A stretch of 64,000 bases of DNA from contig DASXDT010000002.1 of assembly GCA_036490475.1 (NCBI GenBank), forward strand, positions 62,001-126,000, in the 5' to 3' direction. The notes beneath the pieces are model-generated. The model saw only the letters and a program-made list of their open reading frames with translations, searched no databases and was not told where the DNA came from. Origin of the DNA: Candidatus Tumulicola sp. Lineage in GTDB: Bacteria; Vulcanimicrobiota; Vulcanimicrobiia; Vulcanimicrobiales; Vulcanimicrobiaceae. Both the position numbers and the translations under genes were made by a program. Each line of letters starts with the position of its first letter. The first letter of the stretch is position 1. Positions 17,328 through 32,035 of this stretch are shown piece after piece.

Positions 17328-17732
17328 CTACTTCGTTCGCTTACGATACCCGTAGGTCGGAGTGAGGCTGTGGCAGTTGGGGCACAGCATACGGAGATTC
17401 GCGAGACGGTTATCGTTTCGAACTCCGTTGATGTGGTCGATCTGCACGGAGAGCGGCTTGCCCCGCCACGTGTCGATTCCGCAACGGTAACATCTCGGCT
17501 CGAGCAATCCGGCGTGGAGTAGTCGAAGCTTGAGGTGCGTCCGGCCCTTCGCAGCCCGAATGACCTGTTCGATCGACCATTTGCGAACGCGCGTCGTAAT
17601 CTCGCCGCGTGCTAGTGCCTTCTGCCAAGCAGCGCTCGAAAAGCCGAACACGCGAATGCAGTCGTAGTACGTGTGGCCTTGGTCGTAGTACGCTTGTATG
17701 GCTGCCCAGTCGTACTTCCGTCGCTTATCCAT
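17328..17732 (-). CDS. HNH endonuclease with HTH-like N-terminus (copy 1)
   Basis: 134 residues. The C-terminal half is an HNH nuclease with a zinc knuckle: CYRCG, then VQIDHINGVRNDNRLANLR containing the D-H and N of the HNH motif, then LCPNCHS. The N-terminal ~45 residues (YDWAAIQAYYDQG ... FGFSSAAWQKALARGEI) form a helical unit that recurs in the two neighbouring paralogues and looks like a DNA-recognition module. Related proteins occur as stand-alone homing-type or phage-associated nucleases. It lies just upstream of the tRNA pair at the edge of the accessory region. Confidence 0.88.
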   Translation of the reverse strand: MDKRRKYDWAAIQAYYDQGHTYYDCIRVFGFSSAAWQKALARGEITTRVRKWSIEQVIRAAKGRTHLKLRLLHAGLLEPRCYRCGIDTWRGKPLSVQIDHINGVRNDNRLANLRMLCPNCHSLTPTYGYRKRTK

Positions 17733-18065: not shown

Positions 18066-18181
18066 TATCGGGATAAATGTATGGTATCGAACCAGCGTGC
18101 CAACTGGGTGGACAAGTGCTTCGAGACAATACGCTTTTTCTGTGCCAACCAGTTGGCGCACGCGTTTGCGATGATACAAGC

Positions 18182-18772
18182 ATGAAACGCATTTACGATT
18201 GGAAAGCCGTTCAACAGCACTACGATCAGGGACACAAGTTCGTGGAGTGTCTTAAAAAATTTGGCATGACTCACACTGCCTGGCGCACGACAATTCTCCG
18301 CGGCGAACTGCGCGTGCCGTCAACCCCGTTCTCAGATCGACGCAGAAAGCACGATTGGGTTACGATTCAAGCATACTACGACACCGGAGCATCGGTTCGT
18401 GTCTGCGCGGCGGCATTCGGCTTCTGCGTTGAGGCCTGGTCGAAAGCCGTCGCTCGCGGTGAGATTCAACCGCGGCTTCCCGGAATGCCTATAGACGAGT
18501 TACTCGCAAGTACGAAACGGCGTCGCCAACATGTCAAAGCGAGATTGCTTAGAGCTGGCATTCTTAAGAATACATGTGACGGCTGCGGGTTGACTGATTG
18601 GAGAGGCGAACATTTGTCGATGCACTTGGACCACGTCAATGGTGTATCAAACGATCACCGGCTAGCTAATCTTCGGATGCTCTGCCCCAATTGTCACAGT
18701 CAAACGCCAACGTACGGAGGCCGCAATATGCGGCGCAATCGCTCGTTGCATGAACCCGGGCCGCCGTTGTAG
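18182..18772 (+). CDS. HNH endonuclease with two N-terminal recognition repeats (copy 3)
   Basis: 196 residues from ATG 18182. It has two tandem copies of the helical module seen once in copy 1: residues ~4-40 (YDWKAVQQHYDQGHKF ... FGMTHTAW) and ~52-90 (HDWVTIQAYYDTG ... FGFCVEAWSKAVARGEI). The HNH domain follows: CDGCG, HLDHVNGVSNDHRLANLR, LCPNCHSQTPTYGG. Divergent to the broken copy 2. The extra module suggests a longer or altered DNA target than copy 1. The tRNA-Gln gene begins 20 bases after its stop. Confidence 0.88.
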   Translation: MKRIYDWKAVQQHYDQGHKFVECLKKFGMTHTAWRTTILRGELRVPSTPFSDRRRKHDWVTIQAYYDTGASVRVCAAAFGFCVEAWSKAVARGEIQPRLPGMPIDELLASTKRRRQHVKARLLRAGILKNTCDGCGLTDWRGEHLSMHLDHVNGVSNDHRLANLRMLCPNCHSQTPTYGGRNMRRNRSLHEPGPPL

Positions 18773-18792: not shown

Positions 18793-18867
18793 TCCCGGGT
18801 AGTTCAGCGGTAGAACGGCGGCCTCTGAAGCCGCATGTCGGTGGTTCGAGACCATCCCCGGGAGCCA
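18793..18867 (+). tRNA. tRNA-Gln (anticodon CTG)
   Basis: Full cloverleaf: acceptor TCCCGGG pairs with CCCGGGA; D arm GTTC/GAAC; anticodon stem GCGGC/GCCGC around the loop CTCTGAA (anticodon CTG); T arm GGTGG-TTCGAGA-CCATC. An encoded CCA ends at 18867. Confidence 0.95.
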
Positions 18868-18869
18868 TC

Positions 18870-18945
18870 GGCCCTATCGTCTAGAGGCCTAGGACGCCGC
18901 CCTCTCACGGCGGTAACGCGGGTTCGAATCCCGCTGGGGCTACCA
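18870..18945 (+). tRNA. tRNA-Glu (anticodon CTC)
   Basis: Full cloverleaf: acceptor GGCCCTA with TGGGGCT (two G-U pairs); anticodon stem CCGCC/GGCGG around CTCTCAC (anticodon CTC); T arm GCGGG-TTCGAAT-CCCGC; encoded CCA at 18943-18945. It sits 2 bases after tRNA-Gln, so the two are one transcript. Everything to its right for ~24 kb is sparse and accessory in character, so its 3' end is a plausible integration site. Confidence 0.95.
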
Positions 18946-18961: not shown

Positions 18962-19235
18962 CTCCTTATTTTATAGGCGTTCTATGCTTGCACGTATTCC
19001 AGTCAAGACAGCCAACTGTGCAGCCAAATGTACCTTGCGTTGCATCTAAGAGACTGGGCACTGCCGTAAAGCGCACCTAGACGCAACATTCGGGGACCGA
19101 CTCTTGACGATTGGAGCGGTCTGAGCTAGCCACCCTCGATCCGAGCCAGCATCGTCTCCGCCTGCGTTGGACTTGCGATTCGATAGCGTCGTTGCCGAAA
19201 CGGCCGGCAGTCATCAAGACGCACGACCAAAAGCG

Positions 19236-19320
19236 TCTATACAACTATACGCCTATACGCCTATACGCCTATACCACTATACGCCTATGGTCGTATAGGC
19301 CTGTAAGCCATTGCCGGCGC
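19236..19320 (+). repeat. Octamer-array repeat, copy A
   Basis: Tandem CTATACGC octamers, some degenerate, followed by the inverted octamer CGTATAG and then GGCCTGTAAGCCATTGCCGG. The array can fold back on the inverted copy. It is the leftmost member of a dispersed family (copies B to I); this copy lacks the conserved ~75-base core that follows the array in the others. No gene is seen in the flanking 18962-19392. Confidence 0.7.
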
Positions 19321-20639: not shown

Positions 20640-22016
20640 TCACGCGTCCGCTGGCCCGAAGACGGCGTTTAGCCTTCGCACGCTCGAATCATCGTAGCGT
20701 AGTCGCACTAGCGAAACGGCTTGACCATACATGGACTCAAATTCGCGTGCCGATGCTGACATATTTCGGGCCGACTGATATGCCGCGAGGGCCCCCTCAA
20801 AGTCGCCCAGGATGATTCTAGCCTCTCCAATCGTTGCCTCGCGCCACTTATCTCGGTAAGCGCTCTCTGCAGCTTGGAGCGCAAGCTCAGCATGCGCGGC
20901 CGCGGAATTTGGTACCGCGCTCGCCGCAGGCGCTTTCATTACCTCAAGAAAGGCAACATTAATGGCATGGTATAGTACTTGGTTCGGATCGCCAACCGTC
21001 TGAGCCTCAGCAAGTGCAGCATCATAAAGCGAATGCGCGCGTTCCCAATCCGACTCGGCGCCCTTCAGCAGCCACCGCCGCTTGTAGCGTCCGGCGAGTG
21101 TACCTTTCGCGTCGGTGGTATGTGCATATTGCTGTAAAATGCTTAGAGCCTCCGATGCTCGGCCCTGGGCGTCCAGGGCAAGGCTCAGCTCCACTAATGT
21201 ACTGTTGTCAAGTGACTCAGCTACATGGAGGAAAGAGTCGATGACCTCTTGATATCGTCGGTGCTCAATGCTTACGGCGGCACTATCTAGGGTACTCCGC
21301 ACCACGCTGCCGCCGCAAAGGGAGTCGACAATGATTCTTACACTGAGATCATCTTTTGATACGGGCTTAACCATCGTTCGGTGATCGCCTGGAATCACTT
21401 TGCCGGCGTCCGACGGAAACGGATCTAGAACCGATTCGAGTTCAATAAACGCATCCCGCTCTCCGGCGACTGCATGGACATGAAAGGGGAGTGCGCCCTC
21501 GAACTTTGTCGTCCACTCAGATCTCAAGTGCGTTAAGAATTCACTGCCCGGCTTCATGTCCCTGATCTGGTGCTTCGCGAAAGTTAAATACTGAGCTCTT
21601 TCCGTCCCCGTACTCGGCGTTCCAAAGAGGAACAAGTGCCCTATACGGCTTGACATACGATCATTTAGCGCGACCCGTTGAGATATGAGGCCGCCCATGC
21701 TATGTGTAATCAGCGCCAGGGACTTGTATTGTTGGAGTGGCGCATGGTCGACGCGGGTTTGCAATGCGAGAGAAGCCTTCTCTAAATCCGGGTCGTCAGC
21801 CCAGAATCCAAAATCGAACCTTTTCGACGTAGCATAGCTAACAGCGAAAACATCCCAGTTTGCGAGTCGCGGTTCATTCACAAGAAATTGCGGGAAGTCG
21901 CCCCAGTCGCCATTCGAACCTCCCATGCCATGCACAAATAAAATGGCTGCTTCCTTGGAAAGATTGCGAAATGATTCCAAACCGTTACGGGCTCGCCGCC
22001 GCTTCAAAAAGCACAT
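20640..22016 (-). CDS. Serine hydrolase fused to TRAFs-type TPR domain (putative defence effector)
   Basis: 458 residues, two domains. Residues ~22-240 are an alpha/beta hydrolase: oxyanion segment LFVHGMGGSNGDW, nucleophile S106 in THSMGG, candidate D188 (GERDAF) and H212 (GDHRTM), resembling PGAP1/DUF676-type lipases or esterases. Residues ~260-455 are helical repeats with GRYKRRWLLKG, ERAHSLYDAAL, YHAINVAFLEV and WREATIGEARI, the pattern of the MAP3K TRAFs-binding (DUF4071-like) domain found in bacterial conflict and signalling proteins. The ATG overlaps the stop of the SLOG-like gene by one base. Last gene of a TIR/SLOG/hydrolase operon; inferred effector that could cleave lipid, protein or another ester when activated. 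Confidence 0.8.
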   Translation of the reverse strand: MCFLKRRRARNGLESFRNLSKEAAILFVHGMGGSNGDWGDFPQFLVNEPRLANWDVFAVSYATSKRFDFGFWADDPDLEKASLALQTRVDHAPLQQYKSLALITHSMGGLISQRVALNDRMSSRIGHLFLFGTPSTGTERAQYLTFAKHQIRDMKPGSEFLTHLRSEWTTKFEGALPFHVHAVAGERDAFIELESVLDPFPSDAGKVIPGDHRTMVKPVSKDDLSVRIIVDSLCGGSVVRSTLDSAAVSIEHRRYQEVIDSFLHVAESLDNSTLVELSLALDAQGRASEALSILQQYAHTTDAKGTLAGRYKRRWLLKGAESDWERAHSLYDAALAEAQTVGDPNQVLYHAINVAFLEVMKAPAASAVPNSAAAHAELALQAAESAYRDKWREATIGEARIILGDFEGALAAYQSARNMSASAREFESMYGQAVSLVRLRYDDSSVRRLNAVFGPADA

Positions 22017-22549
22017 CAGAGCGTGGGAATACTTAGAATCGGCAGGTGGAGCGAGGTTGCGCGGTCGACAAAATCAGCAGTTGCATCCTCGGAGTTGCGT
22101 CGTTTGCTATCCCAGATCGCGATCGCAATCAGAGAAGTCGCCCCATTAACCGATAGACACACTGCCTCATCGATAATGGTTTGGTTCGCCGATCTGTATC
22201 CGGCGGCATTTCGTTCTACGTTCAGAACAATCAGATCGCCTCTGATTTGAGCCCTCCCTATAGCCTCATCGTAAATGGCCTCCCATTTCCCGGGCCTGTC
22301 GACGACCGAGGACCTGCGGAAGTCGTCGATACCGTAGGGAAGGACTATGCGAAAACAAATGTCCAACTCCATAGATACGTGGATCGCGATCAGGTCCGCG
22401 CCGCAGGCAGCGGAGCTGACCAAACCGGTTACTTTTCGAGATCGAAACTGTTCAGCGATCACACCATGAACGGTTTGAATACGGTCTGACGGAAAGCGCG
22501 GCTCAGCGCCCAACGCATCTATTCGTCGTCCGGCAAGCGCCGCGATCAA
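22016..22549 (-). CDS. SLOG-like nucleotide-binding protein
   Basis: 177 residues: an alpha/beta Rossmann-like fold with AGRRIDALG at the start, PRFP, GLVSSAACGADLIAI, RIVLPYGIDDFRRSSV and a C-terminal AIWDSKRR. These blocks match the SLOG-type (SMF/DprA-LOG) proteins that accompany TRAFs and TIR domains in bacterial conflict systems, where they are thought to bind nucleotide-derived signals. SLOG assignment is from remembered motif pattern, not a search. TTG start overlaps the TIR gene stop (TTGA), and its stop overlaps the hydrolase ATG, so all three are coupled. Inferred role: sensor of the molecule made by the TIR protein. Confidence 0.7.
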   Translation of the reverse strand: MIAALAGRRIDALGAEPRFPSDRIQTVHGVIAEQFRSRKVTGLVSSAACGADLIAIHVSMELDICFRIVLPYGIDDFRRSSVVDRPGKWEAIYDEAIGRAQIRGDLIVLNVERNAAGYRSANQTIIDEAVCLSVNGATSLIAIAIWDSKRRNSEDATADFVDRATSLHLPILSIPTL

Positions 22550-22968
22550 GGTTGATAGGTGTTCTTTGCCGACTTGAGCGCCTCAACGACCCGATCGCGT
22601 TCAAAACTCGTCGCCCAGGATGTTCCGACAGCAAGAATCCCTATGGGCGCGGCGTTGTCTTTCTGCAATTTGACCGCGGCGAGCTTTAGTTTTATATCGT
22701 CTTTCATTGCGCGTTCAATCTCCCAGTTTACCCATTTGCTTGTAGAGGTTTTCTCGCCTACAAGCACGAGCAGATGAGTGGCTGTCATCATCATTTTCGT
22801 CAATGTAGACTTAACGACAACTGCGTCCGCGCTATCGATTTTAACATCCGGACCGCGACTGTCGAAATCGAAATCAAAGTCGTTATTGGCATCCCAAGCT
22901 TGGAGCAATCGCTTATAGTGCACGTCTTCGCTGTGGTCGTACGAAACAAAAACCTTAGTCCTGGGCAT
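22546..22968 (-). CDS. ThsB-like TIR-domain protein
   Basis: 140 residues from ATG 22968, with GGAGAG 6 bases upstream; a longer in-frame start at 23187 has no support. The start KVFVSYDHSEDVHYKRLL and the block HLLVLVGEKTSTSKWVNWE match the ThsB/DUF1863 TIR-like family, in which the Glu of the W-V-x-W-E region (E83) is the likely NADase catalytic residue. In Thoeris systems ThsB proteins make an ADP-ribose-type signal on phage infection. Here the downstream partners are a SLOG-like protein and a hydrolase-TRAFs protein rather than canonical ThsA (SIR2-SLOG). First gene of the operon. Confidence 0.82.
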   Translation of the reverse strand: MPRTKVFVSYDHSEDVHYKRLLQAWDANNDFDFDFDSRGPDVKIDSADAVVVKSTLTKMMMTATHLLVLVGEKTSTSKWVNWEIERAMKDDIKLKLAAVKLQKDNAAPIGILAVGTSWATSFERDRVVEALKSAKNTYQP

Positions 22969-23688
22969 GGTACGCTCTCCTTTTGTAAAACACTTAATCA
23001 AATCTGGGACACGTGTGAGAATCCCTGCAATGCAAGAGCCCTCCGTTTCCGCGGGGCGAGGTTCGATGACGTACTTGCTTGACCTTGGGGACCCTTTGGC
23101 TCGGGCCGAGTCGTCCACGCCGGTAATTTTAGTCAGAATCACCATGCCTCTTCGCCACCATGGCCAAGGCTTTGCTTCAGCACGCATTGGTCCATCCCTT
23201 AGCCTTCAGACGGCTTCGCAACCATCGACAACAGAATAGGGCAGGAGCGCAGCCCGTCAGCGCGTTGGCGGGCATTCCATGACCTGCGCTGGAGCCTCCT
23301 GCACCTGAAGTCGTGACACATCCTTCAACGAATCGGTATAGCCCACTCATCGTCCGCTCTTCCGATCGAAAAGCGTGCGTCAATTACCAACAATCCCCCG
23401 GGACGTTCGCGTCGCTCGATACGCTTAGCGAACCGCGGGCGGGAGCACGGTGGGGTCACAGACCCGCCGTTAGACGCATCAGCCGGTGTTTCTGAACCTG
23501 CGCATCTGCTCGCAGTGCGGGGTGCGATTTGTTAGCTCTCCTCGCAGCAGGGCGACGTTCTGCTCGACCCGTTCGGAACCGAGCATGTGGGCCAACACAG
23601 AGCCGATTTTAATACCGGCAGAGCGCTCACGTCGCAACGTCAGTTGCCGACCTCCTCGGCGATCGTCGCGAGGCAATTCCGACGATAC
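22969..23688. other. Gene-poor stretch, possible Zn-ribbon relic
   Basis: No convincing gene. The plus strand at 23501-23565 reads ICSQCGVRF then RATFCSTR, resembling a four-cysteine zinc ribbon whose last cysteine is lost; this may be a relic. Confidence 0.3.
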
Positions 23689-24051
23689 TTAGCGCGTCGC
23701 AAAGGTTAAAGAATCGCTAGCGCCGGAATGTCGAGAGCCGCCCAGCAGTGCTACACGGAACTCCTGACAGAACGGGCTAAGTAACCACGCAAGGCCCCCA
23801 CGTCCTGAGCGTCCCTGGTCTTTGGCGGCCTGAAGTTTCGCAAAGCTTCTCATCGCGTCTTCGTTCGCGAAGTCTTTGACGCGTCGCGTTCCATTGGGAT
23901 CCGTTTTCACGATCGCGTGACCCACAAGCCAGCGCCGGAGCGCTAAACAGCGAACGGATGAAGTAACCAGATTCGCGACGGCGCGGCCGGTGGCCGCTGA
24001 CGGTAGCCAATCCGTGGCGGATCTCCGCGCGTAGCCAAAAGCCCTTGCCAC
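23689..24051 (-). pseudogene. Possible recombinase relic (copy 1)
   Basis: An open frame whose middle reads RWLVGHAIVKTDPNGTRRVK then FANEDAMRSFAKLQ. The same block appears at 24465-24791 as VTRIVNTAPDGTRRVEF then TRDEALAKLH. The pattern (strand, GTRR, then TRDEALAKL) resembles the N-terminal DNA-binding part of phage-type tyrosine recombinases. The rest is not recognisable, so a decayed fragment is likelier than a working gene. Confidence 0.35.
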
Positions 24052-24420
24052 TATAACGCAATGCCACTATAGGCGTATGTCGCCATGTCGCCATGTCGCC
24101 ATGTCGCCATGTCGCTATGTCGCTATGTCGCTATACGCCTATACACCTATACGCCTATACGCCTGTAAGCGTATAGGCCTGTAAGCCGTTGCCGGGCCGG
24201 CGCCCCAGCACCGATGGTCTAACACGGAGGTCTTAGATATTCTGCAAATTGTGCTTAAACGCGAGCTGAAAGCGCGTGCGGATTCGCAACGACGCCGGCC
24301 CGACCGCGGTCCACCTTACCCCCTCCGCACTCGGCAGTTTCCGAGATGACCAAGGGGGTAAGCGCTACGAGCGTTCGCCGACAAGGCGTGCATAGCGGCG
24401 CGCTGCCGGGCCTGTACTGG
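24052..24420 (+). repeat. Structured repeat element, copy B (most complete)
   Basis: Three parts in order. (1) An octamer/nonamer array at 24058-24175, first ATGTCGCC-type then CTATACGC-type, ending in a perfect 8-bp hairpin CTATACGC-CTGTAA-GCGTATAG. (2) A conserved core of ~120 bases with GGTCTTAGATATTCTGCAAA and GCTTAAACGCGAGC. (3) A nested hairpin: outer CTTACCCCC (24315-24323) with GGGGGTAAG (24354-24362), inner CTCGG (24330-24334) with CCGAG (24341-24345). A further ~60 bases after it are shared with copy E. Confidence 0.75.
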
Positions 24421-24464
24421 AGCTTCTGCGCGCGAGCCGACCAAAGACTCGCCGACCGATTTCC

Positions 24465-24791
24465 CTACGCTACAAACGCTTCTAAGCCCGTTTTACCGGA
24501 AGTCCGCGACGCACTTGAGGCTCGCAAGCTCGGCATCCGCGTTCTCATCGGCATGCAACGCGGTTTGCGTTGCCTCAGCCAATCGCATTTTTCGCTTCGA
24601 TTCCGCATTGACAGCAGCAGTCGATTTAATGCTCGATAACTCTTAATCGAGCTGTCGCTAGAACTTCGCACCTTCCCTAAGCTCGCCGTTCTGACGTGCA
24701 GCTTCGCAAGCGCCTCGTCGCGCGTCCGGGCGGTGAACTCGACGCGTCGCGTTCCATCCGGAGCCGTGTTCACGATCCGCGTGACCCACAA
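24465..24791 (-). pseudogene. Possible recombinase relic (copy 2)
   Basis: Open frame beginning WVTRIVNTAPDGTRRVEF then TARTRDEALAKLHVRTASL, which looks like the N-terminal arm-binding region of a tyrosine recombinase; the remaining ~65 residues are Ser/Arg-rich and carry no catalytic R-H-R-Y residues. Paired with the similar relic at 23689-24051. Inference only. Confidence 0.35.
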
Positions 24792-24973
24792 GCCATCGCT
24801 GGAGCACCTAGACAGCGAACCCGTTCCTTTGCTACGGCGCTTGCGCTTTGGCGCGGGCTAGCGCTTCGCCGCCGAGAGCGCTCATACCCCACGCCCGGCG
24901 CTGGCGCCGATTCGGCCGCGAGAGCGATAGCCACCAAGGCGCTTGCAGGGCACTGCAGTCGTCGTGCGGTTCG

Positions 24974-25089
24974 ATCTCCAAGCCTTCCTGGAAGCCCTGC
25001 GCAGTCTCGAGCAAGACGCGGGCGCGTTCGACGCTGTGGGCGACTGGACGCAGGCGCCGGCGGCGAGATGGCTCGTTCGATTGAACTGA
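24974..25089 (+). pseudogene. Recurrent gene-end relic (copy 2 of 3)
   Basis: The plus strand reads FLEALRSLEQDAGAFDAVGDW and a short tail to TGA. Related tails occur at 20196-20280 and 35520-35625. No start is visible. Identity of the parent gene unknown. Confidence 0.4.
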
Positions 25090-25114
25090 CAAGGCCGACG
25101 CCACTACGGTGTTA

Positions 25115-25310
25115 CAGGCTTATAGTGCTACAGCCTTACGGGCCTGTTTGCATATAGGCGTATGGGCGTATCGGCGTACAGGCCTGTTGGGCTCTTCAAC
25201 TGTCCACCTGCGCCGGTTGCCGGCGGTCGCGTGGCCTAATACCGAGGTCTTAGATATTCTGCAATCGTGTTCAAACGCGCCGAAGACGCGTGCCGGTTCG
25301 CAACGCGCCG
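25115..25310 (+). repeat. Structured repeat element, copy C
   Basis: A degenerate array of GCTTATAG/GGCGTATGGGCGTA-type units (25115-25185) is followed by the core with ACCGAGGTCTTAGATATTCT, TTCAAACGCGCCGAAGACGCG and GGTTCGCAACGCG. The nested hairpin part is missing. The lipoprotein gene at 25394 begins ~85 bases downstream. Confidence 0.7.
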
Positions 25311-26392: not shown

Positions 26393-26601
26393 AACGCGGG
26401 AATTGCCATCCGTGGTCAGCAAGGGCTTTTGATGGCCATTCAATCGCGCAGAGCCTTTCTGGACTAGTTGGGCGCCGAGCTCAAGATAGAATCATTGTTT
26501 GGCGCTGAGCCACTTGGAACCGCGTCGAAGGGGTGCGTCTGTGACATAGCGAGCTCTGTGTCTTGGGAGGCGTCTGCACTCTAGCTCAAAAACCAACGCC
26601 A

Positions 26602-27414
26602 ATGGTCCCAAAGCTCATTTCGCGGAAGACCTTGAACGAGTTCCGAGAATGGATGGTTGGATGTGTGTTGCGTAAGATCGACGACGAATTTTCAGCCGCC
26701 GGCATCACCCTCGCGCCGACATCTTCGGTAGTGGTTCATGGTCAGCGGCGCAGCCAAATCGAACTTTATTATGCGTCACTCGATCTGACGAAGCCAACCG
26801 ACGCGGAAAAACTCTTAGCAGTTTTCGAGAATATTATATTGTCGGCAACAACTGCAACTCAGTCAGGTTCGGCCGATTTGATAGCATGGATCGAGAAGGA
26901 TGGTTACGTATACGAAGGCGGTCGACTTCGACGACGGAGTCCGACCGGAATGCGCGCGACGGCCGATAAGGTTGCGGCAGCCACTTCCGGGAGCATCCAC
27001 ACCGACATCCGGCGGATCGAAGATTCGATCGATCGCGATCCAGCGCTCGCAATCGGTTCCGCCAAAGAGTTGATCGAAACCGTCTGCAAAACAATTCTCG
27101 AAGCAAAAGGTATATCATACTCTAAGGCCAGCGATTTAAGTGAACTTGTCAAAGCGGCAACCAAGGCGTTACAGTTGGCTCCAGAGGACATACCGAGCGC
27201 CGCGAAGGGTGCCGACTTGATTAAACGTACGCTGCACAGTCTTGCCGCCGTCGCTGGAAGTATTGGCGAGTTGCGATCTTTATACGGCACCGGTCACGGC
27301 AAAAGCGCAAGCACGAGGGGCCTTCAGCCACGGCATGCGCGCTTCGTAGTTGGTTGCGCTTCGACGCTGGTGACATTCCTATGGGACACGTTTGAAGCTC
27401 GGCCGAACGCATAA
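26602..27414 (+). CDS. Abortive-infection C-terminal (Abi_C) domain protein
   Basis: 270 residues from ATG 26602; an upstream TTG at 26563 is possible but unsupported. The C-terminal ~130 residues show the Abi_C pattern: DPALAIGSAKELIETVCKTI, a DLSELVKAA helix, then ELRSLYGTGHGK and RHARFVVGCASTLV. In other bacteria this domain occurs in abortive-infection phage-resistance proteins and is HEPN-related. The N-terminal half is unassigned. It lies between repeat copies C and D, alone on the plus strand, and strengthens the case that the region is a defence island. Confidence 0.8.
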   Translation: MVPKLISRKTLNEFREWMVGCVLRKIDDEFSAAGITLAPTSSVVVHGQRRSQIELYYASLDLTKPTDAEKLLAVFENIILSATTATQSGSADLIAWIEKDGYVYEGGRLRRRSPTGMRATADKVAAATSGSIHTDIRRIEDSIDRDPALAIGSAKELIETVCKTILEAKGISYSKASDLSELVKAATKALQLAPEDIPSAAKGADLIKRTLHSLAAVAGSIGELRSLYGTGHGKSASTRGLQPRHARFVVGCASTLVTFLWDTFEARPNA

Positions 27415-27684: not shown

Positions 27685-28020
27685 CTCGCTGATGGTAGCC
27701 GATCCGTGGAAGGATTGATCTCCGCATCCGCCGGGCATTCCGTGAGTCGCACGGGCGTATACGCCTGTACGCTTATGCGCCCATACGCCCATACGCCCAT
27801 AGGCGTACAGGCCTGTACGCCGTTCGCCTGGCATGTACGCTGTTTGCGGCGACCTCCTCGGCGTTGCCCTGACGCCGAGGTCTTAGATATTCTGCAAATC
27901 GTGCTCAAACGCGAGCCGAAAACGCGTGCCGGTTCGCAACGACGCAGGCCCGACCGCGATCCACCTTACCCCCTCCTCACTCGGCAGTTTCCGAGATGAC
28001 CAAGGGGGTAGGCGTAGGAG
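27685..28020 (+). repeat. Structured repeat element, copy D
   Basis: Parts in order: a leader shared with copies B and E (GGTAGCCGATCCGTGG-like, 27694-27709); an array of CCCATACG-type octamers ending in GGCGTACAGGCCTGTACGCC (27752-27825); a core with GAGGTCTTAGATATTCTGCA and GCTCAAACGCGAGC (27877-27915); and a nested hairpin with CTTACCCCC (27965-27973) against GGGGGTAG (28004-28011) and inner CTCGG/CCGAG. Confidence 0.75.
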
Positions 28021-28220
28021 CGTCGCCGTGCCAGATCGTGCAAGCTGGTGACGGCGTTACGCAAGTCGTTCTTCGTGAAGCGGGCGACAATATGTACGTT
28101 TCGAATTTCGCTACCGGCGGTATCTATATCAATCACTATTCCCCGGGCAAGTTTCAAGTAAAAATCGACAACGGTGGAGGCGGCGTTCAGGGCACGGCGC
28201 TTAGCAACGAAGAGCGCTAA
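27996..28220 (+). pseudogene. Fragment of a propeller lipoprotein after repeat D
   Basis: An open frame of 74 codons starts inside the repeat hairpin. Its middle (GDNMYVSNFATGG then INHYSPGKFQVKIDNGG) resembles the C-terminal repeat of the lipoprotein at 25394 (GNVYVANTTAS then IYSPGSSKVTGHISNGS). It has no signal peptide or ribosome site and is probably a 3' remnant joined to a repeat. Ends 3 bases before the convergent monooxygenase stop. Confidence 0.5.
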
Positions 28221-30819: not shown

Positions 30820-31200
30820 ATTGCAGTAGCAGATTCGCGACGGATCTCTGCGCCTGGCCAAAGGGGCGTATGCCCCTATGTCGCTATACCCCTATGTCGC
30901 TATGTCCCTATGTCGCTATGTCCCTGTGGGCTTACAGGCCCGTACGCCGTTGCCGGCCGACGCGCAGCATCGATGGCGTAACACCGAGGTCTTAGATATT
31001 CTGCAAATCGTGCTCAAACGCGAGCCGAAAACGCGTGCGGTTCGCAACGGCGCCGGTCCGATCTCGATCCAGCACCCCCCTCCTCACTCTACGTATTCAG
31101 AATCTCGGAGACGACTGAGGGGTAAGCGCTAGGAGCGTTCATCGACGAGGCGTGCATAGCGGCGCGTTGCGTGGCCCGTGCTGGAGCGTCTGCGTGTGCG
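30820..31200 (+). repeat. Structured repeat element, copy E
   Basis: Parts in order: a leader GTAGCAGATTCGCGACGGAT-like; hairpin AGGGGCGTATGCCCCT; an array of CCCTATGTCGCTATGT units (30870-30925); a core with GAGGTCTTAGATATTCTGCA and GCTCAAACGCGAGCCGAAAA (30985-31032); and a degenerate nested hairpin (31073-31126) keeping GGGGTAAGCGCTAGGAGCGT. About 60 further bases match copy B. A small gene starts at 31442. Confidence 0.75.
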
Positions 31201-31441
31201 CCGACCAAACACCCGCCGGCCCAGTTCCCGACGCCACAGGGCGTTTCTCGGCCCGTTTTCCCGGCAGTGTGCGACGCACCACTCGAGACGGTCTGGCGCA
31301 TACACGTTGGGAGCCGAAAGGGTCGGGCTGGCCGCGCTGAAACCAGATGCGCATGACGCAACACCGCCGCCTCCCGCGCACCATTAACGACATCGTACAA
31401 CAGCGTGGAACGCCGCCAAAGGGCTCGATGCTCGAAGCGCC

Positions 31442-31696
31442 ATGAAAGATAACCCGTACTTAGGTCATGCTCCCGATCAGAAGCGTGAGCTGACGGATGC
31501 GCAGCAAAAGTTGTTCATCGAGATGATACGTATGCGACCGCATGCATCCGGTGAGTCTACACGCCGACGAGCCGTGCGACTCGGCGACAGACTCGATTGT
31601 CGCCTGGAGTATCTTTTCAAAGAATATCCGGGGCTCCGCCCATCGAGCGTCGTCTCGTTCGCGATTACACGATTCCTCGATGAACTCGGACAGTGA
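31442..31696 (+). CDS. Hypothetical small basic protein (84 aa)
   Basis: 84 residues from ATG 31442. The C-terminal ~40 residues (STRRRAVRLGDRLDCRLEYL then GLRPSSVVSFAITRFLDEL) have a strand-helix-helix look suggestive of a ribbon-helix-helix DNA-binding fold, but no family is recognised. It sits between repeat copies E and F on the same strand, like a cassette. Could be an antitoxin-like or regulatory protein; unproven. Confidence 0.5.
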   Translation: MKDNPYLGHAPDQKRELTDAQQKLFIEMIRMRPHASGESTRRRAVRLGDRLDCRLEYLFKEYPGLRPSSVVSFAITRFLDELGQ

Positions 31697-31717
31697 CGTG
31701 ACGTAACGCTTGGGATA

Positions 31718-32035
31718 CCAAAAGGGCCTATAGGCCTCTTCGCCCTTTCTCCTGGACTTGTAAGCCGTTGTCGGCGGTCGCGTCGCGTCGATGGCGCGAC
31801 ACCGTCGTCTCAGATCTCCATGCAAATCGTGCTCAAAACGCGAGCTGAAAGCGCGCTGATCGAAACGAAATCGACGGGACTCTTCGCGTCAGCCGGGCGC
31901 TGCGAATCGGAACGCGCGACGTGTCTTATAAGACGCATGAGATACCGAAGGGGCCTCTTCGCACCTTCGCCCTTTCTCGCACGTTTGACGGCTAAAAGGG
32001 GCGTCTTCGCCCCTTTGCCTCTTCGCCGGGTGTTG
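31718..32035 (+). repeat. Structured repeat elements, copies F and G (diverged)
   Basis: Copy F (31718-31860): hairpin AAAGGGCC...GCCCTTT, then GTAAGCCGTTGTCGGCGG, GATGGCGCGACACCGTCGTC, GCAAATCGTGCTCAAAACGC. Copy G (31948-32035): two hairpins, the second AAAAGGGGCG-TCTT-CGCCCCTTT with a terminator-like shape. The octamers of copies A-D are replaced by CTCTTCGC units. Confidence 0.6.

What the first reader, a model, noticed from the sequence alone, without database searches (positions are those of the whole stretch)
20640..22968. Candidate Thoeris-like defence operon: ThsB-type TIR, SLOG-like protein and hydrolase-TRAFs effector
Three genes overlap by 1 to 4 bases (TTGA, TGATG). The first is ThsB-like, with S-K-W-V-N-W-E at the expected catalytic position; the second has SLOG-like blocks; the third joins a serine hydrolase (S106 in THSMGG, H212) to a TRAFs-type helical domain. 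In known Thoeris systems TIR proteins make an ADP-ribose-type signal sensed by a SLOG or macro domain on the effector. Here the sensor would be a separate protein and the effector an esterase/lipase, a layout I do not recognise as described.
Basis: partly seen in the sequence, partly recalled or inferred. Interest (0 to 1): 0.85.

Follow-up and report, generated by a model that had tools for sequence, protein, structure and literature searches.

The report
TIR-triggered lipase defence operon
Three overlapping bacterial genes look like a suicide-type antiviral alarm in which one protein makes a chemical signal and a signal-sensing lipase, helped by a little-known binding protein, then damages the cell's own membranes; the parts belong to known kinds, but this arrangement appears untested.

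Summary
On the minus strand lie a ThsB-type TIR (140 aa, E83 intact), a 177-aa SLOG-fold protein and an alpha/beta hydrolase (triad S106/D188/H212) with a C-terminal TPR domain; overlaps are 4 and 1 bases. Two corrections. The helical domain is Pfam TPR-S ("sensor", PF20308), so the effector carries its own putative receptor. The SLOG protein belongs to an unannotated family nearest in fold to YpsA/DprA, not to the ThsA SLOG. In 43 fetched loci from about 11 phyla that hold a relative of the SLOG protein, TPR-S is nearby in 27 of 43 (chance about 0.13), a lipid hydrolase (patatin or this lipase) in 25 of 43, and a ThsB-type TIR in 10 of 43. SLOG-TPR-S-patatin and patatin-SLOG single-chain fusions exist. 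Eight loci carry the same lipase; seven of these carry the TIR, five in the same order. In a same-genus genome the same tRNA site carries a phage integrase instead. Best reading: a TIR-signalling abortive-infection system with a TPR-S-gated lipase and a SLOG co-receptor. It works like Thoeris but is not Thoeris by its effector; it is nearest to the TPR-S systems predicted in 2020 (recalled). Function is untested.

The parts
22546..22968 (-). ThsB-type TIR protein, 140 aa; predicted signal-producing NAD+ enzyme
   Evidence: PF08937 62.9 bits; PADLOC ThsB 7e-18; homologues 72-73% identical in Rhodoferax L072 and Nitrospira L083
22720..22722 (-). codon of E83, the predicted catalytic glutamate of the TIR
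   Evidence: position; invariant in 13 of 13 TIRs
22977..22981 (-). Shine-Dalgarno-like AGGAG, 8 nt before the TIR start
   Evidence: sequence
22016..22549 (-). SLOG-fold protein, 177 aa (TTG start), unannotated family; predicted nucleotide-binding co-receptor
   Evidence: AF2 pLDDT 91.5; YpsA Z 16.6, DprA 12.8, LOG 10.3, ThsA SLOG 7.0; 43 homologous loci; no LOG catalytic motif in 41 of 41 aligned rows
20640..22016 (-). alpha/beta hydrolase (lipase type) fused to TPR-S, 458 aa; predicted effector
   Evidence: PF12697 and PF20308; AF2 pLDDT 81.5; lipase matches Z 20.9 and 20.8
21384..21944 (-). alpha/beta hydrolase domain of the effector
   Evidence: PF12697 match, residues 25-211
21699..21701 (-). 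codon of S106, predicted nucleophile (THSMGG); D188 at 21453-21455 and H212 at 21381-21383 complete the predicted triad
   Evidence: invariant in 8 of 8 full-length rows
20946..21254 (-). TPR-S sensor domain core of the effector
   Evidence: PF20308 45.6 bits, residues 255-357
18793..18945 (+). tRNA-Gln and tRNA-Glu pair; boundary of the variable island that holds the operon
   Evidence: the same-genus genome G108 has a phage integrase next to this tRNA pair and no match to the trio in the 19 kb fetched

Best explanation
A three-gene abortive-infection system. On a phage cue the TIR protein converts NAD+ into an ADP-ribose-type signal (inferred). The signal, or the signal plus a second nucleotide, is bound by the TPR-S domain of the effector and by the separate SLOG protein, which acts as co-receptor or activating subunit (inferred; coupling of these parts is indicated by gene fusions in other species). 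Binding unleashes the lipase domain, which hydrolyses membrane lipids and stops the infected cell (inferred from the intact triad, from lipase structural matches, and from patatin phospholipases standing in place of this lipase in sister loci). Shown here: gene order and overlap, intact catalytic residues, folds, the association across phyla, the effector swap, and presence at a variable tRNA site. Not shown: antiphage activity, the chemical signal, and which protein senses it.
For: The same TIR, SLOG and lipase/TPR-S genes occur in 7 of the 8 fetched loci that carry this lipase (L062, L072, L073, L077, L078, L082, L083; L064 lacks a TIR hit); 5 of 8 keep the same order on one strand. TPR-S lies within the fetched flanks of 27 of 43 SLOG-family loci against 0.13 expected; 25 of 43 have a lipid hydrolase, 17 patatin and 8 this lipase. 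Single-chain links: SLOG-TPR-S-patatin (L067, L068), patatin-SLOG (L075), DRHyd-like-TPR-S-SLOG (L053, L087, L093). The patatin of L061, the one stand-alone patatin tested, matches the CBASS phospholipase model (118 bits, below its cut-off of 200) and PADLOC phospholipase effectors at 150 bits. TIRs 51-52% identical to this one lie on four Acinetobacter plasmids; on the three that I opened the next gene encodes a DRHyd-like-TPR-S protein, and local profiles find no SLOG, lipase, patatin or SLATT in any frame of the stretches fetched, so TIR plus TPR-S looks like the constant core. SLOG proteins paired with this lipase, 9 rows from 5 phyla with the window's, form one group apart from the patatin-linked SLOGs of the window's own phylum (support 62/70; as few changes in 0 of 500 shuffles).
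Against: No functional data. Support for the lipase-linked SLOG group is weak (62/70) and the window SLOG is a long branch. Nine of 43 SLOG loci show no TPR-S, lipid hydrolase or adjacent SLOG-SLATT gene, so the SLOG family also occurs without them, although several of these loci are cut by contig ends. Only 10 of 43 have a ThsB-type TIR and 24 of 43 any TIR by the local profiles. A converse search with the lipase alignment found matches over the whole model only in genomes already in the set (1 of 385 and 1 of 295; 1 of 399 gave only the truncated copy already known; three partial hits besides), so the association could not be tested independently from the effector side. In plasmids P0003 matched 10 records, all under 51% of its length. 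No recognised phage-sensing component was identified. The lipase could act on something other than phospholipid.
Confidence: 0.62

Rival explanations
1. One reading: a Thoeris variant in which the SLOG protein alone senses a cADPR-type signal and then switches on the hydrolase, whose helical tail is only a scaffold.
For: SLOG fold confirmed, and the ThsA SLOG solved with 3'cADPR is among the structural matches (Z 7.0); patatin-SLOG fusion without TPR-S in the same chain in L075.
Against: The hydrolase tail is a recognised TPR-S domain. Relatives of this TIR on Acinetobacter plasmids sit beside TPR-S proteins, with no SLOG of this family in the fetched stretches. The fold is much nearer YpsA/DprA than ThsA SLOG.
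Confidence: 0.13
2. NAD+ depletion rather than a made signal: the TIR lowers NAD+, which relieves an NAD-bound, inhibited lipase; SLOG reads the NAD+/ADP-ribose state.
For: One of the two best structural matches of the hydrolase is a bacterial phospholipase solved with thio-NAD bound (6zti, Z 20.8 over 224 residues).
Against: A lipase solved without it matches equally well (6wpx, Z 20.9). Most lipid hydrolases in sister loci (17 of 25) are patatins, a different fold, so a shared NAD site in the catalytic domain is unlikely. TPR-S and SLOG would be redundant.
Confidence: 0.06
3. A nucleotide-signalling or programmed-death module that serves stress or development rather than phage defence.
For: Related SLOG and TPR-S genes occur in cyanobacteria and other large-genome lineages, and the overlapping family PF13281 is named after animal MAP3K kinases.
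Against: Patchy distribution (SLOG family in 7 of 149 genomes of the phylum, own and two weak matches included; this TIR in 2 of 149, the second only 29% identical), a variable tRNA site, plasmid-borne relatives, and an Abi_C protein 3.6 kb away are typical of defence cargo.
Confidence: 0.14
4. Chance neighbours or an artefact of ORF calling.
For: None found.
Against: Overlapping genes, invariant catalytic residues, and co-occurrence in 7 other loci from several phyla.
Confidence: 0.01

Closest known systems
TPR-S nucleotide-activated systems (Pfam PF20308; Burroughs and Aravind 2020, J Bacteriol; recalled, full text not held)
   Same: TPR-S sensor fused to an effector and encoded with a TIR; predicted to read NAD+-derived signals
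   Different: Here the effector is an alpha/beta lipase and a stand-alone YpsA-like SLOG protein is added; whether that paper drew this exact trio could not be checked
Thoeris (ThsA SIR2-SLOG or TM-macro plus ThsB TIR; PMC11204291, passages read; caspase-type effector of Rousset et al. 2025 seen only as a reference entry)
   Same: ThsB-type TIR with catalytic glutamate; a SLOG-fold protein; separate effector
   Different: No SIR2, TM-macro or caspase effector recognised in the operon; the SLOG is a separate protein of another subfamily; the effector is a TPR-S lipase. NCBIfam Thoeris type III ThcB4 matches the TIR only weakly (14.4 bits, cut-off 220)
CBASS and related systems with CapV-type patatin phospholipase effectors
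   Same: Lipid hydrolase as effector; the patatin of sister locus L061 matches phospholipase effector models
   Different: No CD-NTase among the 5 window proteins scanned; the signal maker is a TIR; the window effector is an alpha/beta hydrolase
SLOG-SLATT / LSDAT modules (PF18171, PF18181)
   Same: SLOG-family genes are next to a SLOG-SLATT gene in L065 (Pfam) and to its close relatives in L079 and L091
   Different: SLATT is a membrane-helix effector; none was recognised in the window operon
YpsA (DUF1273) and DprA
   Same: Best structural matches to the SLOG protein, with ShosA
   Different: No Pfam family covers the 177-aa protein, and its genomic context is TPR-S and lipid hydrolases

Membership tests
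Thoeris | ThsB: TIR domain with catalytic glutamate | tested here: met
   PF08937 62.9 bits, PADLOC ThsB 7e-18, E83 invariant in 13 of 13
Thoeris | ThsA effector (SIR2-SLOG or TM-macro) | tested here: not met
   No ThsA, SIR2 or macro hit in the three operon proteins or the two neighbours scanned; the effector is a hydrolase with TPR-S
Thoeris | TIR makes a cADPR or ADPR-conjugate signal that activates the effector | not testable with these tools
   needs biochemistry
TPR-S immune systems | PF20308 TPR-S domain | tested here: met
   45.6 bits against a cut-off of 27.6
TPR-S immune systems | NAD+-signal generator (TIR) encoded next to TPR-S | tested here: met
   overlapping operon in the window; TIR also present in 7 of 8 loci with the same lipase
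TPR-S immune systems | TPR-S binds the NAD+-derived signal | not testable with these tools
   prediction recalled from the literature
SLOG superfamily | Rossmann-like SLOG fold | tested here: met
   predicted model: YpsA Z 16.6, 149 residues, rmsd 2.5; DprA 12.8; LOG 10.3
SLOG superfamily, LOG branch | PGGxGT catalytic motif of LOG enzymes (motif recalled) | tested here: not met
   0 of 41 aligned sequences
Serine lipase / alpha-beta hydrolase | nucleophile elbow and Ser-Asp-His triad on an alpha/beta hydrolase fold | tested here: met
   S106 (in HSMGG), D188 and H212 invariant in 8 of 8 full-length rows; lipase folds Z about 20
CBASS | CD-NTase gene | tested here: inconclusive
   No CD-NTase model hit in the 5 proteins scanned; the rest of the window was not scanned with PADLOC

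The most novel reading that the evidence does not exclude
A distinct class of TIR immunity with two receptors: an unannotated SLOG family spread over about 11 phyla co-gates interchangeable lipid hydrolases (patatin or alpha/beta lipase) together with TPR-S, so that the lipase fires only when TPR-S and SLOG are both occupied, perhaps by different nucleotides. If the animal ASK kinase region descends from TPR-S (recalled; PF13281 overlap seen here), one ancestral role would have been signal-gated membrane destruction.
Probability: 0.4. Interest if true: 0.8.

Novelty: new variant of a known kind. Interest (0 to 1): 0.6.

Why it matters
It turns a domain-based prediction (TPR-S as a receptor for TIR-made signals) into a compact, testable three-gene system with clear catalytic residues, and it identifies a widespread SLOG family that no model in the Pfam, PADLOC or NCBIfam copies used here recognised. 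If it works as proposed, bacteria link TIR signalling directly to lipid hydrolysis, adding lipases to the TIR-activated effectors, and the SLOG protein would be a new receptor or gate worth a ligand search.

Tried and rejected
Rejected: that the 177-aa protein is unrelated to SLOG (its model matches YpsA and DprA; a PDB profile search by sequence found no SLOG protein, best E 0.011 to a serine dehydratase); that it is a LOG-type hydrolase (no motif); that the trio is unique to this genome.

Led nowhere: the SLOG alignment against viral contigs and P0002 against phage records gave no relative. P0002 matched 1 plasmid record. The hydrolase matched 10 plasmid records (P0003) or 1 (its L083 relative), always over about half its length or less. 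Converse searches with the lipase alignment: 1 of 385, 1 of 399 (the truncated copy already known) and 4 of 295, of which three were partial; every match over the whole model was in a genome already in the set. Literature searches for TPR-S with TIR or SLOG, for Thoeris with patatin, and for the word TPR-S alone found no paper on this domain in the open library; of six papers I read passages only (PMC8195603, PMC9503650, PMC13092281, PMC13174449, PMC11204291, PMC13232231). Most subscription papers, including the 2020 TPR-S paper, are not held, so absence there proves little. The fold search of the 458-aa effector model covered the hydrolase; the TPR-S part was barely tested. Weak TPR-S hits are not specific: at E<=0.001 the family also rang in 5 of 14 control genomes, over the cut-off in 1; at E<=1e-7 in 0 of 14.

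Dropped before counts: of 19 coordinate matches of ThsB TIRs to loci I dropped two (L058, L079), because the local TIR profile found no ThsB-type TIR in those stretches; the L058 hit is on another contig number, the L079 hit probably is. Rows L093 (cut), L094 (frame broken) and L095 (partial) were left out of alignment A2, so 40 of 43 loci plus the window protein were aligned and put in the tree. Of 46 TPR-S hits, those outside the locus range or whose open frame did not match the locus were not counted. Genome sizes behind the chance figures are rounded.
Full report
What is there. Three genes read on the minus strand overlap by 4 and 1 bases: a TIR protein (22546-22968, 140 aa), a 177-aa protein (22016-22549, TTG start) and a 458-aa hydrolase (20640-22016). 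The TIR start is backed by an AGGAG eight bases upstream and by a homologue of nearly the same length (L072, 138 aa); the TTG start of the second gene coincides with the start of the conserved LAGRRID block in the family alignment.

The TIR. It scores 62.9 bits to Pfam ThsB_TIR (cut-off 21.2) and 7e-18 to a PADLOC ThsB model; NCBIfam gives only a weak Thoeris type III ThcB4 match (14.4 bits, cut-off 220). E83 is identical in 13 of 13 aligned TIRs (the window's and 12 from related loci). Two TIR classes accompany this lipase: one like the window's (72-73% identical in Rhodoferax L072 and Nitrospira L083; 54-57% in Hymenobacter L082) and one with a glycine-rich N-terminus (L062, L077, L078, L073 and a second TIR of L083; L062, L077 and L078 are 25-29% identical to the window TIR locally). 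Within a class the TIR is more conserved than its partners: between the window and L083 the TIR is 73% identical, the SLOG 41% and the hydrolase 41%; between L062 and L077 71%, 51% and 50%.

The SLOG protein. No model in Pfam, PADLOC or NCBIfam recognised it at E<=1. An AlphaFold2 model built from 41 sequences has mean pLDDT 91.5. VIA-align gives Z 16.6 to B. subtilis YpsA (149 residues, rmsd 2.5), 12.9 to ShosA, 12.8 to DprA, 10.3 to a LOG enzyme, 8.8 to a TRPM2 channel solved with ADP-ribose and 7.0 to the ThsA SLOG with 3'cADPR; the last lies below thiamin pyrophosphokinase (7.9) and in a range the tool calls common. Foldseek puts ShosA and DprA first with E below 1e-4. Fourteen positions are invariant in the 41-row alignment: G7, R8, R9, D11, F19, A48, G50, D52, P71, F77, S81, V82, D84 and W89. 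The LOG motif is absent in 41 of 41. I read it as a nucleotide-binding SLOG of a new family; its ligand is unknown.

The effector. The N-terminal half is an alpha/beta hydrolase with S106, D188 and H212 identical in 8 of 8 full-length rows; a ninth, L072, is cut by its contig end. The C-terminal half matches TPR-S, PF20308, at 45.6 bits. The model (pLDDT 81.5) matches lipases: BlEst2 Z 20.9 and the phospholipase PlaB with thio-NAD Z 20.8.

Conservation. PF20308 was then sought in all 43 genomes: 46 hits at E<=1e-7, 33 of 43 genomes with at least one, 0 of 14 control genomes. Mapped by coordinate and reading frame, TPR-S lies in the fetched flanks of 27 of 43 loci; 0.13 hits would be expected by chance. 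For ThsB TIRs, 32 hits exist in 19 of 43 genomes, and 17 of them lie in 10 of the 43 loci after dropping two coordinate coincidences, against 0.09 expected. With a second TIR profile added, 24 of 43 loci have some TIR.

Effector exchange. Seventeen of 43 loci carry a patatin phospholipase: 13 by local profile and four by Pfam in chains that also hold TPR-S (L067, L068, L076, L092). Eight carry the window's lipase (L062, L064, L072, L073, L077, L078, L082, L083). Of those eight, seven also have a ThsB TIR, and five keep the order TIR, SLOG, lipase on one strand (L062, L072, L077, L078, L083). Fusions tie the parts together: SLOG-TPR-S-patatin (1085 aa in L067, 1047 aa in L068), patatin-SLOG (L075), DRHyd-like-TPR-S-SLOG (L053, L087, L093). 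'DRHyd' is my recalled name for the N-terminal domain of those proteins; one of them (L062) matches a PADLOC TIR effector model at 7.6e-10. Three further loci have next to the SLOG gene a gene that is SLOG-SLATT by Pfam (L065) or its close relative (L079, L091). Nine of 43 show none of these (L057, L060, L069, L070, L080, L081, L088, L089, L095).

The constant core. Four Acinetobacter plasmids carry a TIR 51-52% identical to the window's. In the three that I opened, the next gene is annotated tetratricopeptide and two further TIR genes flank the pair. The TPR gene is TPR-S by Pfam in the two scanned, and DRHyd-like plus TPR-S by local profiles in all three, while profiles of the SLOG family, the lipase, patatin and SLATT found nothing in any ORF of 50 aa or more in the three stretches. 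This suggests TIR plus TPR-S as the core and SLOG plus lipid hydrolase as a module coupled to it. On a Lichenicola plasmid a TIR, a SLOG homologue and a TIR-TPR-S gene follow each other.

History. In the window's phylum the SLOG family occurs in 7 of 149 genomes, own and two weak matches included, and this TIR in 2 of 149, the other being 29% identical. In the tree of 41 SLOG proteins the nine partners of this lipase, from five phyla with the window's, form one group (62/70 support, 1 change, none of 500 shuffles as low), away from the patatin-linked SLOGs of the same phylum (L058, L059, L075); the window row is a long branch, so its place is unsure. The operon lies 1.7 kb past a tRNA-Gln/tRNA-Glu pair in a stretch (18-23 kb) of G+C 0.52-0.56; elsewhere between 10 and 34 kb it is mostly 0.57-0.64, with 0.52 again at 26-27 kb. 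The same-genus genome G108 keeps the genes before that tRNA pair but has a phage integrase next to the pair; none of the window's trio matched the 19 kb fetched there, and the whole G108 genome gave no match to P0001 or P0002. This fits a horizontally acquired cassette at a tRNA site.

Mechanism. The most economical model: the TIR, activated by infection, makes an ADP-ribose-type signal from NAD+; TPR-S on the lipase, together with the SLOG protein, senses it; the lipase attacks membranes and the cell dies before phage release. Catalytic residues, folds and associations are shown; the signal, the sensing step, the lipid substrate and the antiphage effect are inferred. Interchange of the lipase with patatins, of which the one stand-alone patatin tested matches antiphage phospholipase effector models, is the best argument that the lipase is the executioner.

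Known or new. The TIR, TPR-S and lipid-hydrolase parts are each of known kinds. TPR-S was defined by others as a predicted sensor (Pfam name; the 2020 paper is recalled, not read). Thoeris membership fails on the effector. I therefore call it a new variant of a known kind. The SLOG family, unannotated yet widespread and fused to both TPR-S and phospholipase, is the least expected element. My searches of the open library showed no description of this trio, but the key subscription paper was not held.

Noticed in passing
window 19229-19317 and 24077-24203: Tandem octamer arrays (CTATACGC units, followed by a reverse-complement unit) stand in the same orientation on both sides of the operon, about 4.9 kb apart. 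The 16-base double unit at up to 1 mismatch was found at only these two places in the 3.3 Mb genome held.
   Followed up: partly
window 23831-25310, 27765-28028, 30869-31855: Family of diverged repeats (74-92% identical blocks of 65-416 bases) beyond the operon, sharing a GAGGTCTTAGATATTCTGCAA segment; possibly a cassette-like or mobile repeat.
   Followed up: partly
window 26563-27414 (+): Protein with an Abi_C domain (PF14355, 84.8 bits; PADLOC AbiJ 4e-8), 3.6 kb from the trio: a second candidate defence gene in the same island.
   Followed up: no
window 17328-17732 (-) and 18077-18772 (+): Two HNH-domain proteins next to the tRNA pair (the second just below Pfam's cut-off); both match one gene at the same position in the same-genus genome.
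   Followed up: no
L039, L040, L041 and others: Several relatives in the window's family carry a separate DRHyd-like-TPR-S protein (PF13281 at 132.8 bits in L039), in some near SLOG-SLATT or CHASE2-TIR genes (labels by eye).
   Followed up: partly
L043 89-1885: Single chain with TPR repeats, a weak SLOG-family match and a C-terminal region that looks like a nucleotide cyclase (by eye) in G127.
   Followed up: no
L098, L099, L102 (Acinetobacter plasmids): Compact four-gene set TIR-TIR-TPR protein-TIR, beside a HigBA-type toxin-antitoxin pair on L098 and L102; three TIRs per TPR-S protein, and no lipase, patatin or SLATT found in the stretches.
   Followed up: partly
L082 6135-7595: In Hymenobacter two different TIR genes flank the SLOG gene on the opposite strand.
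   Followed up: no
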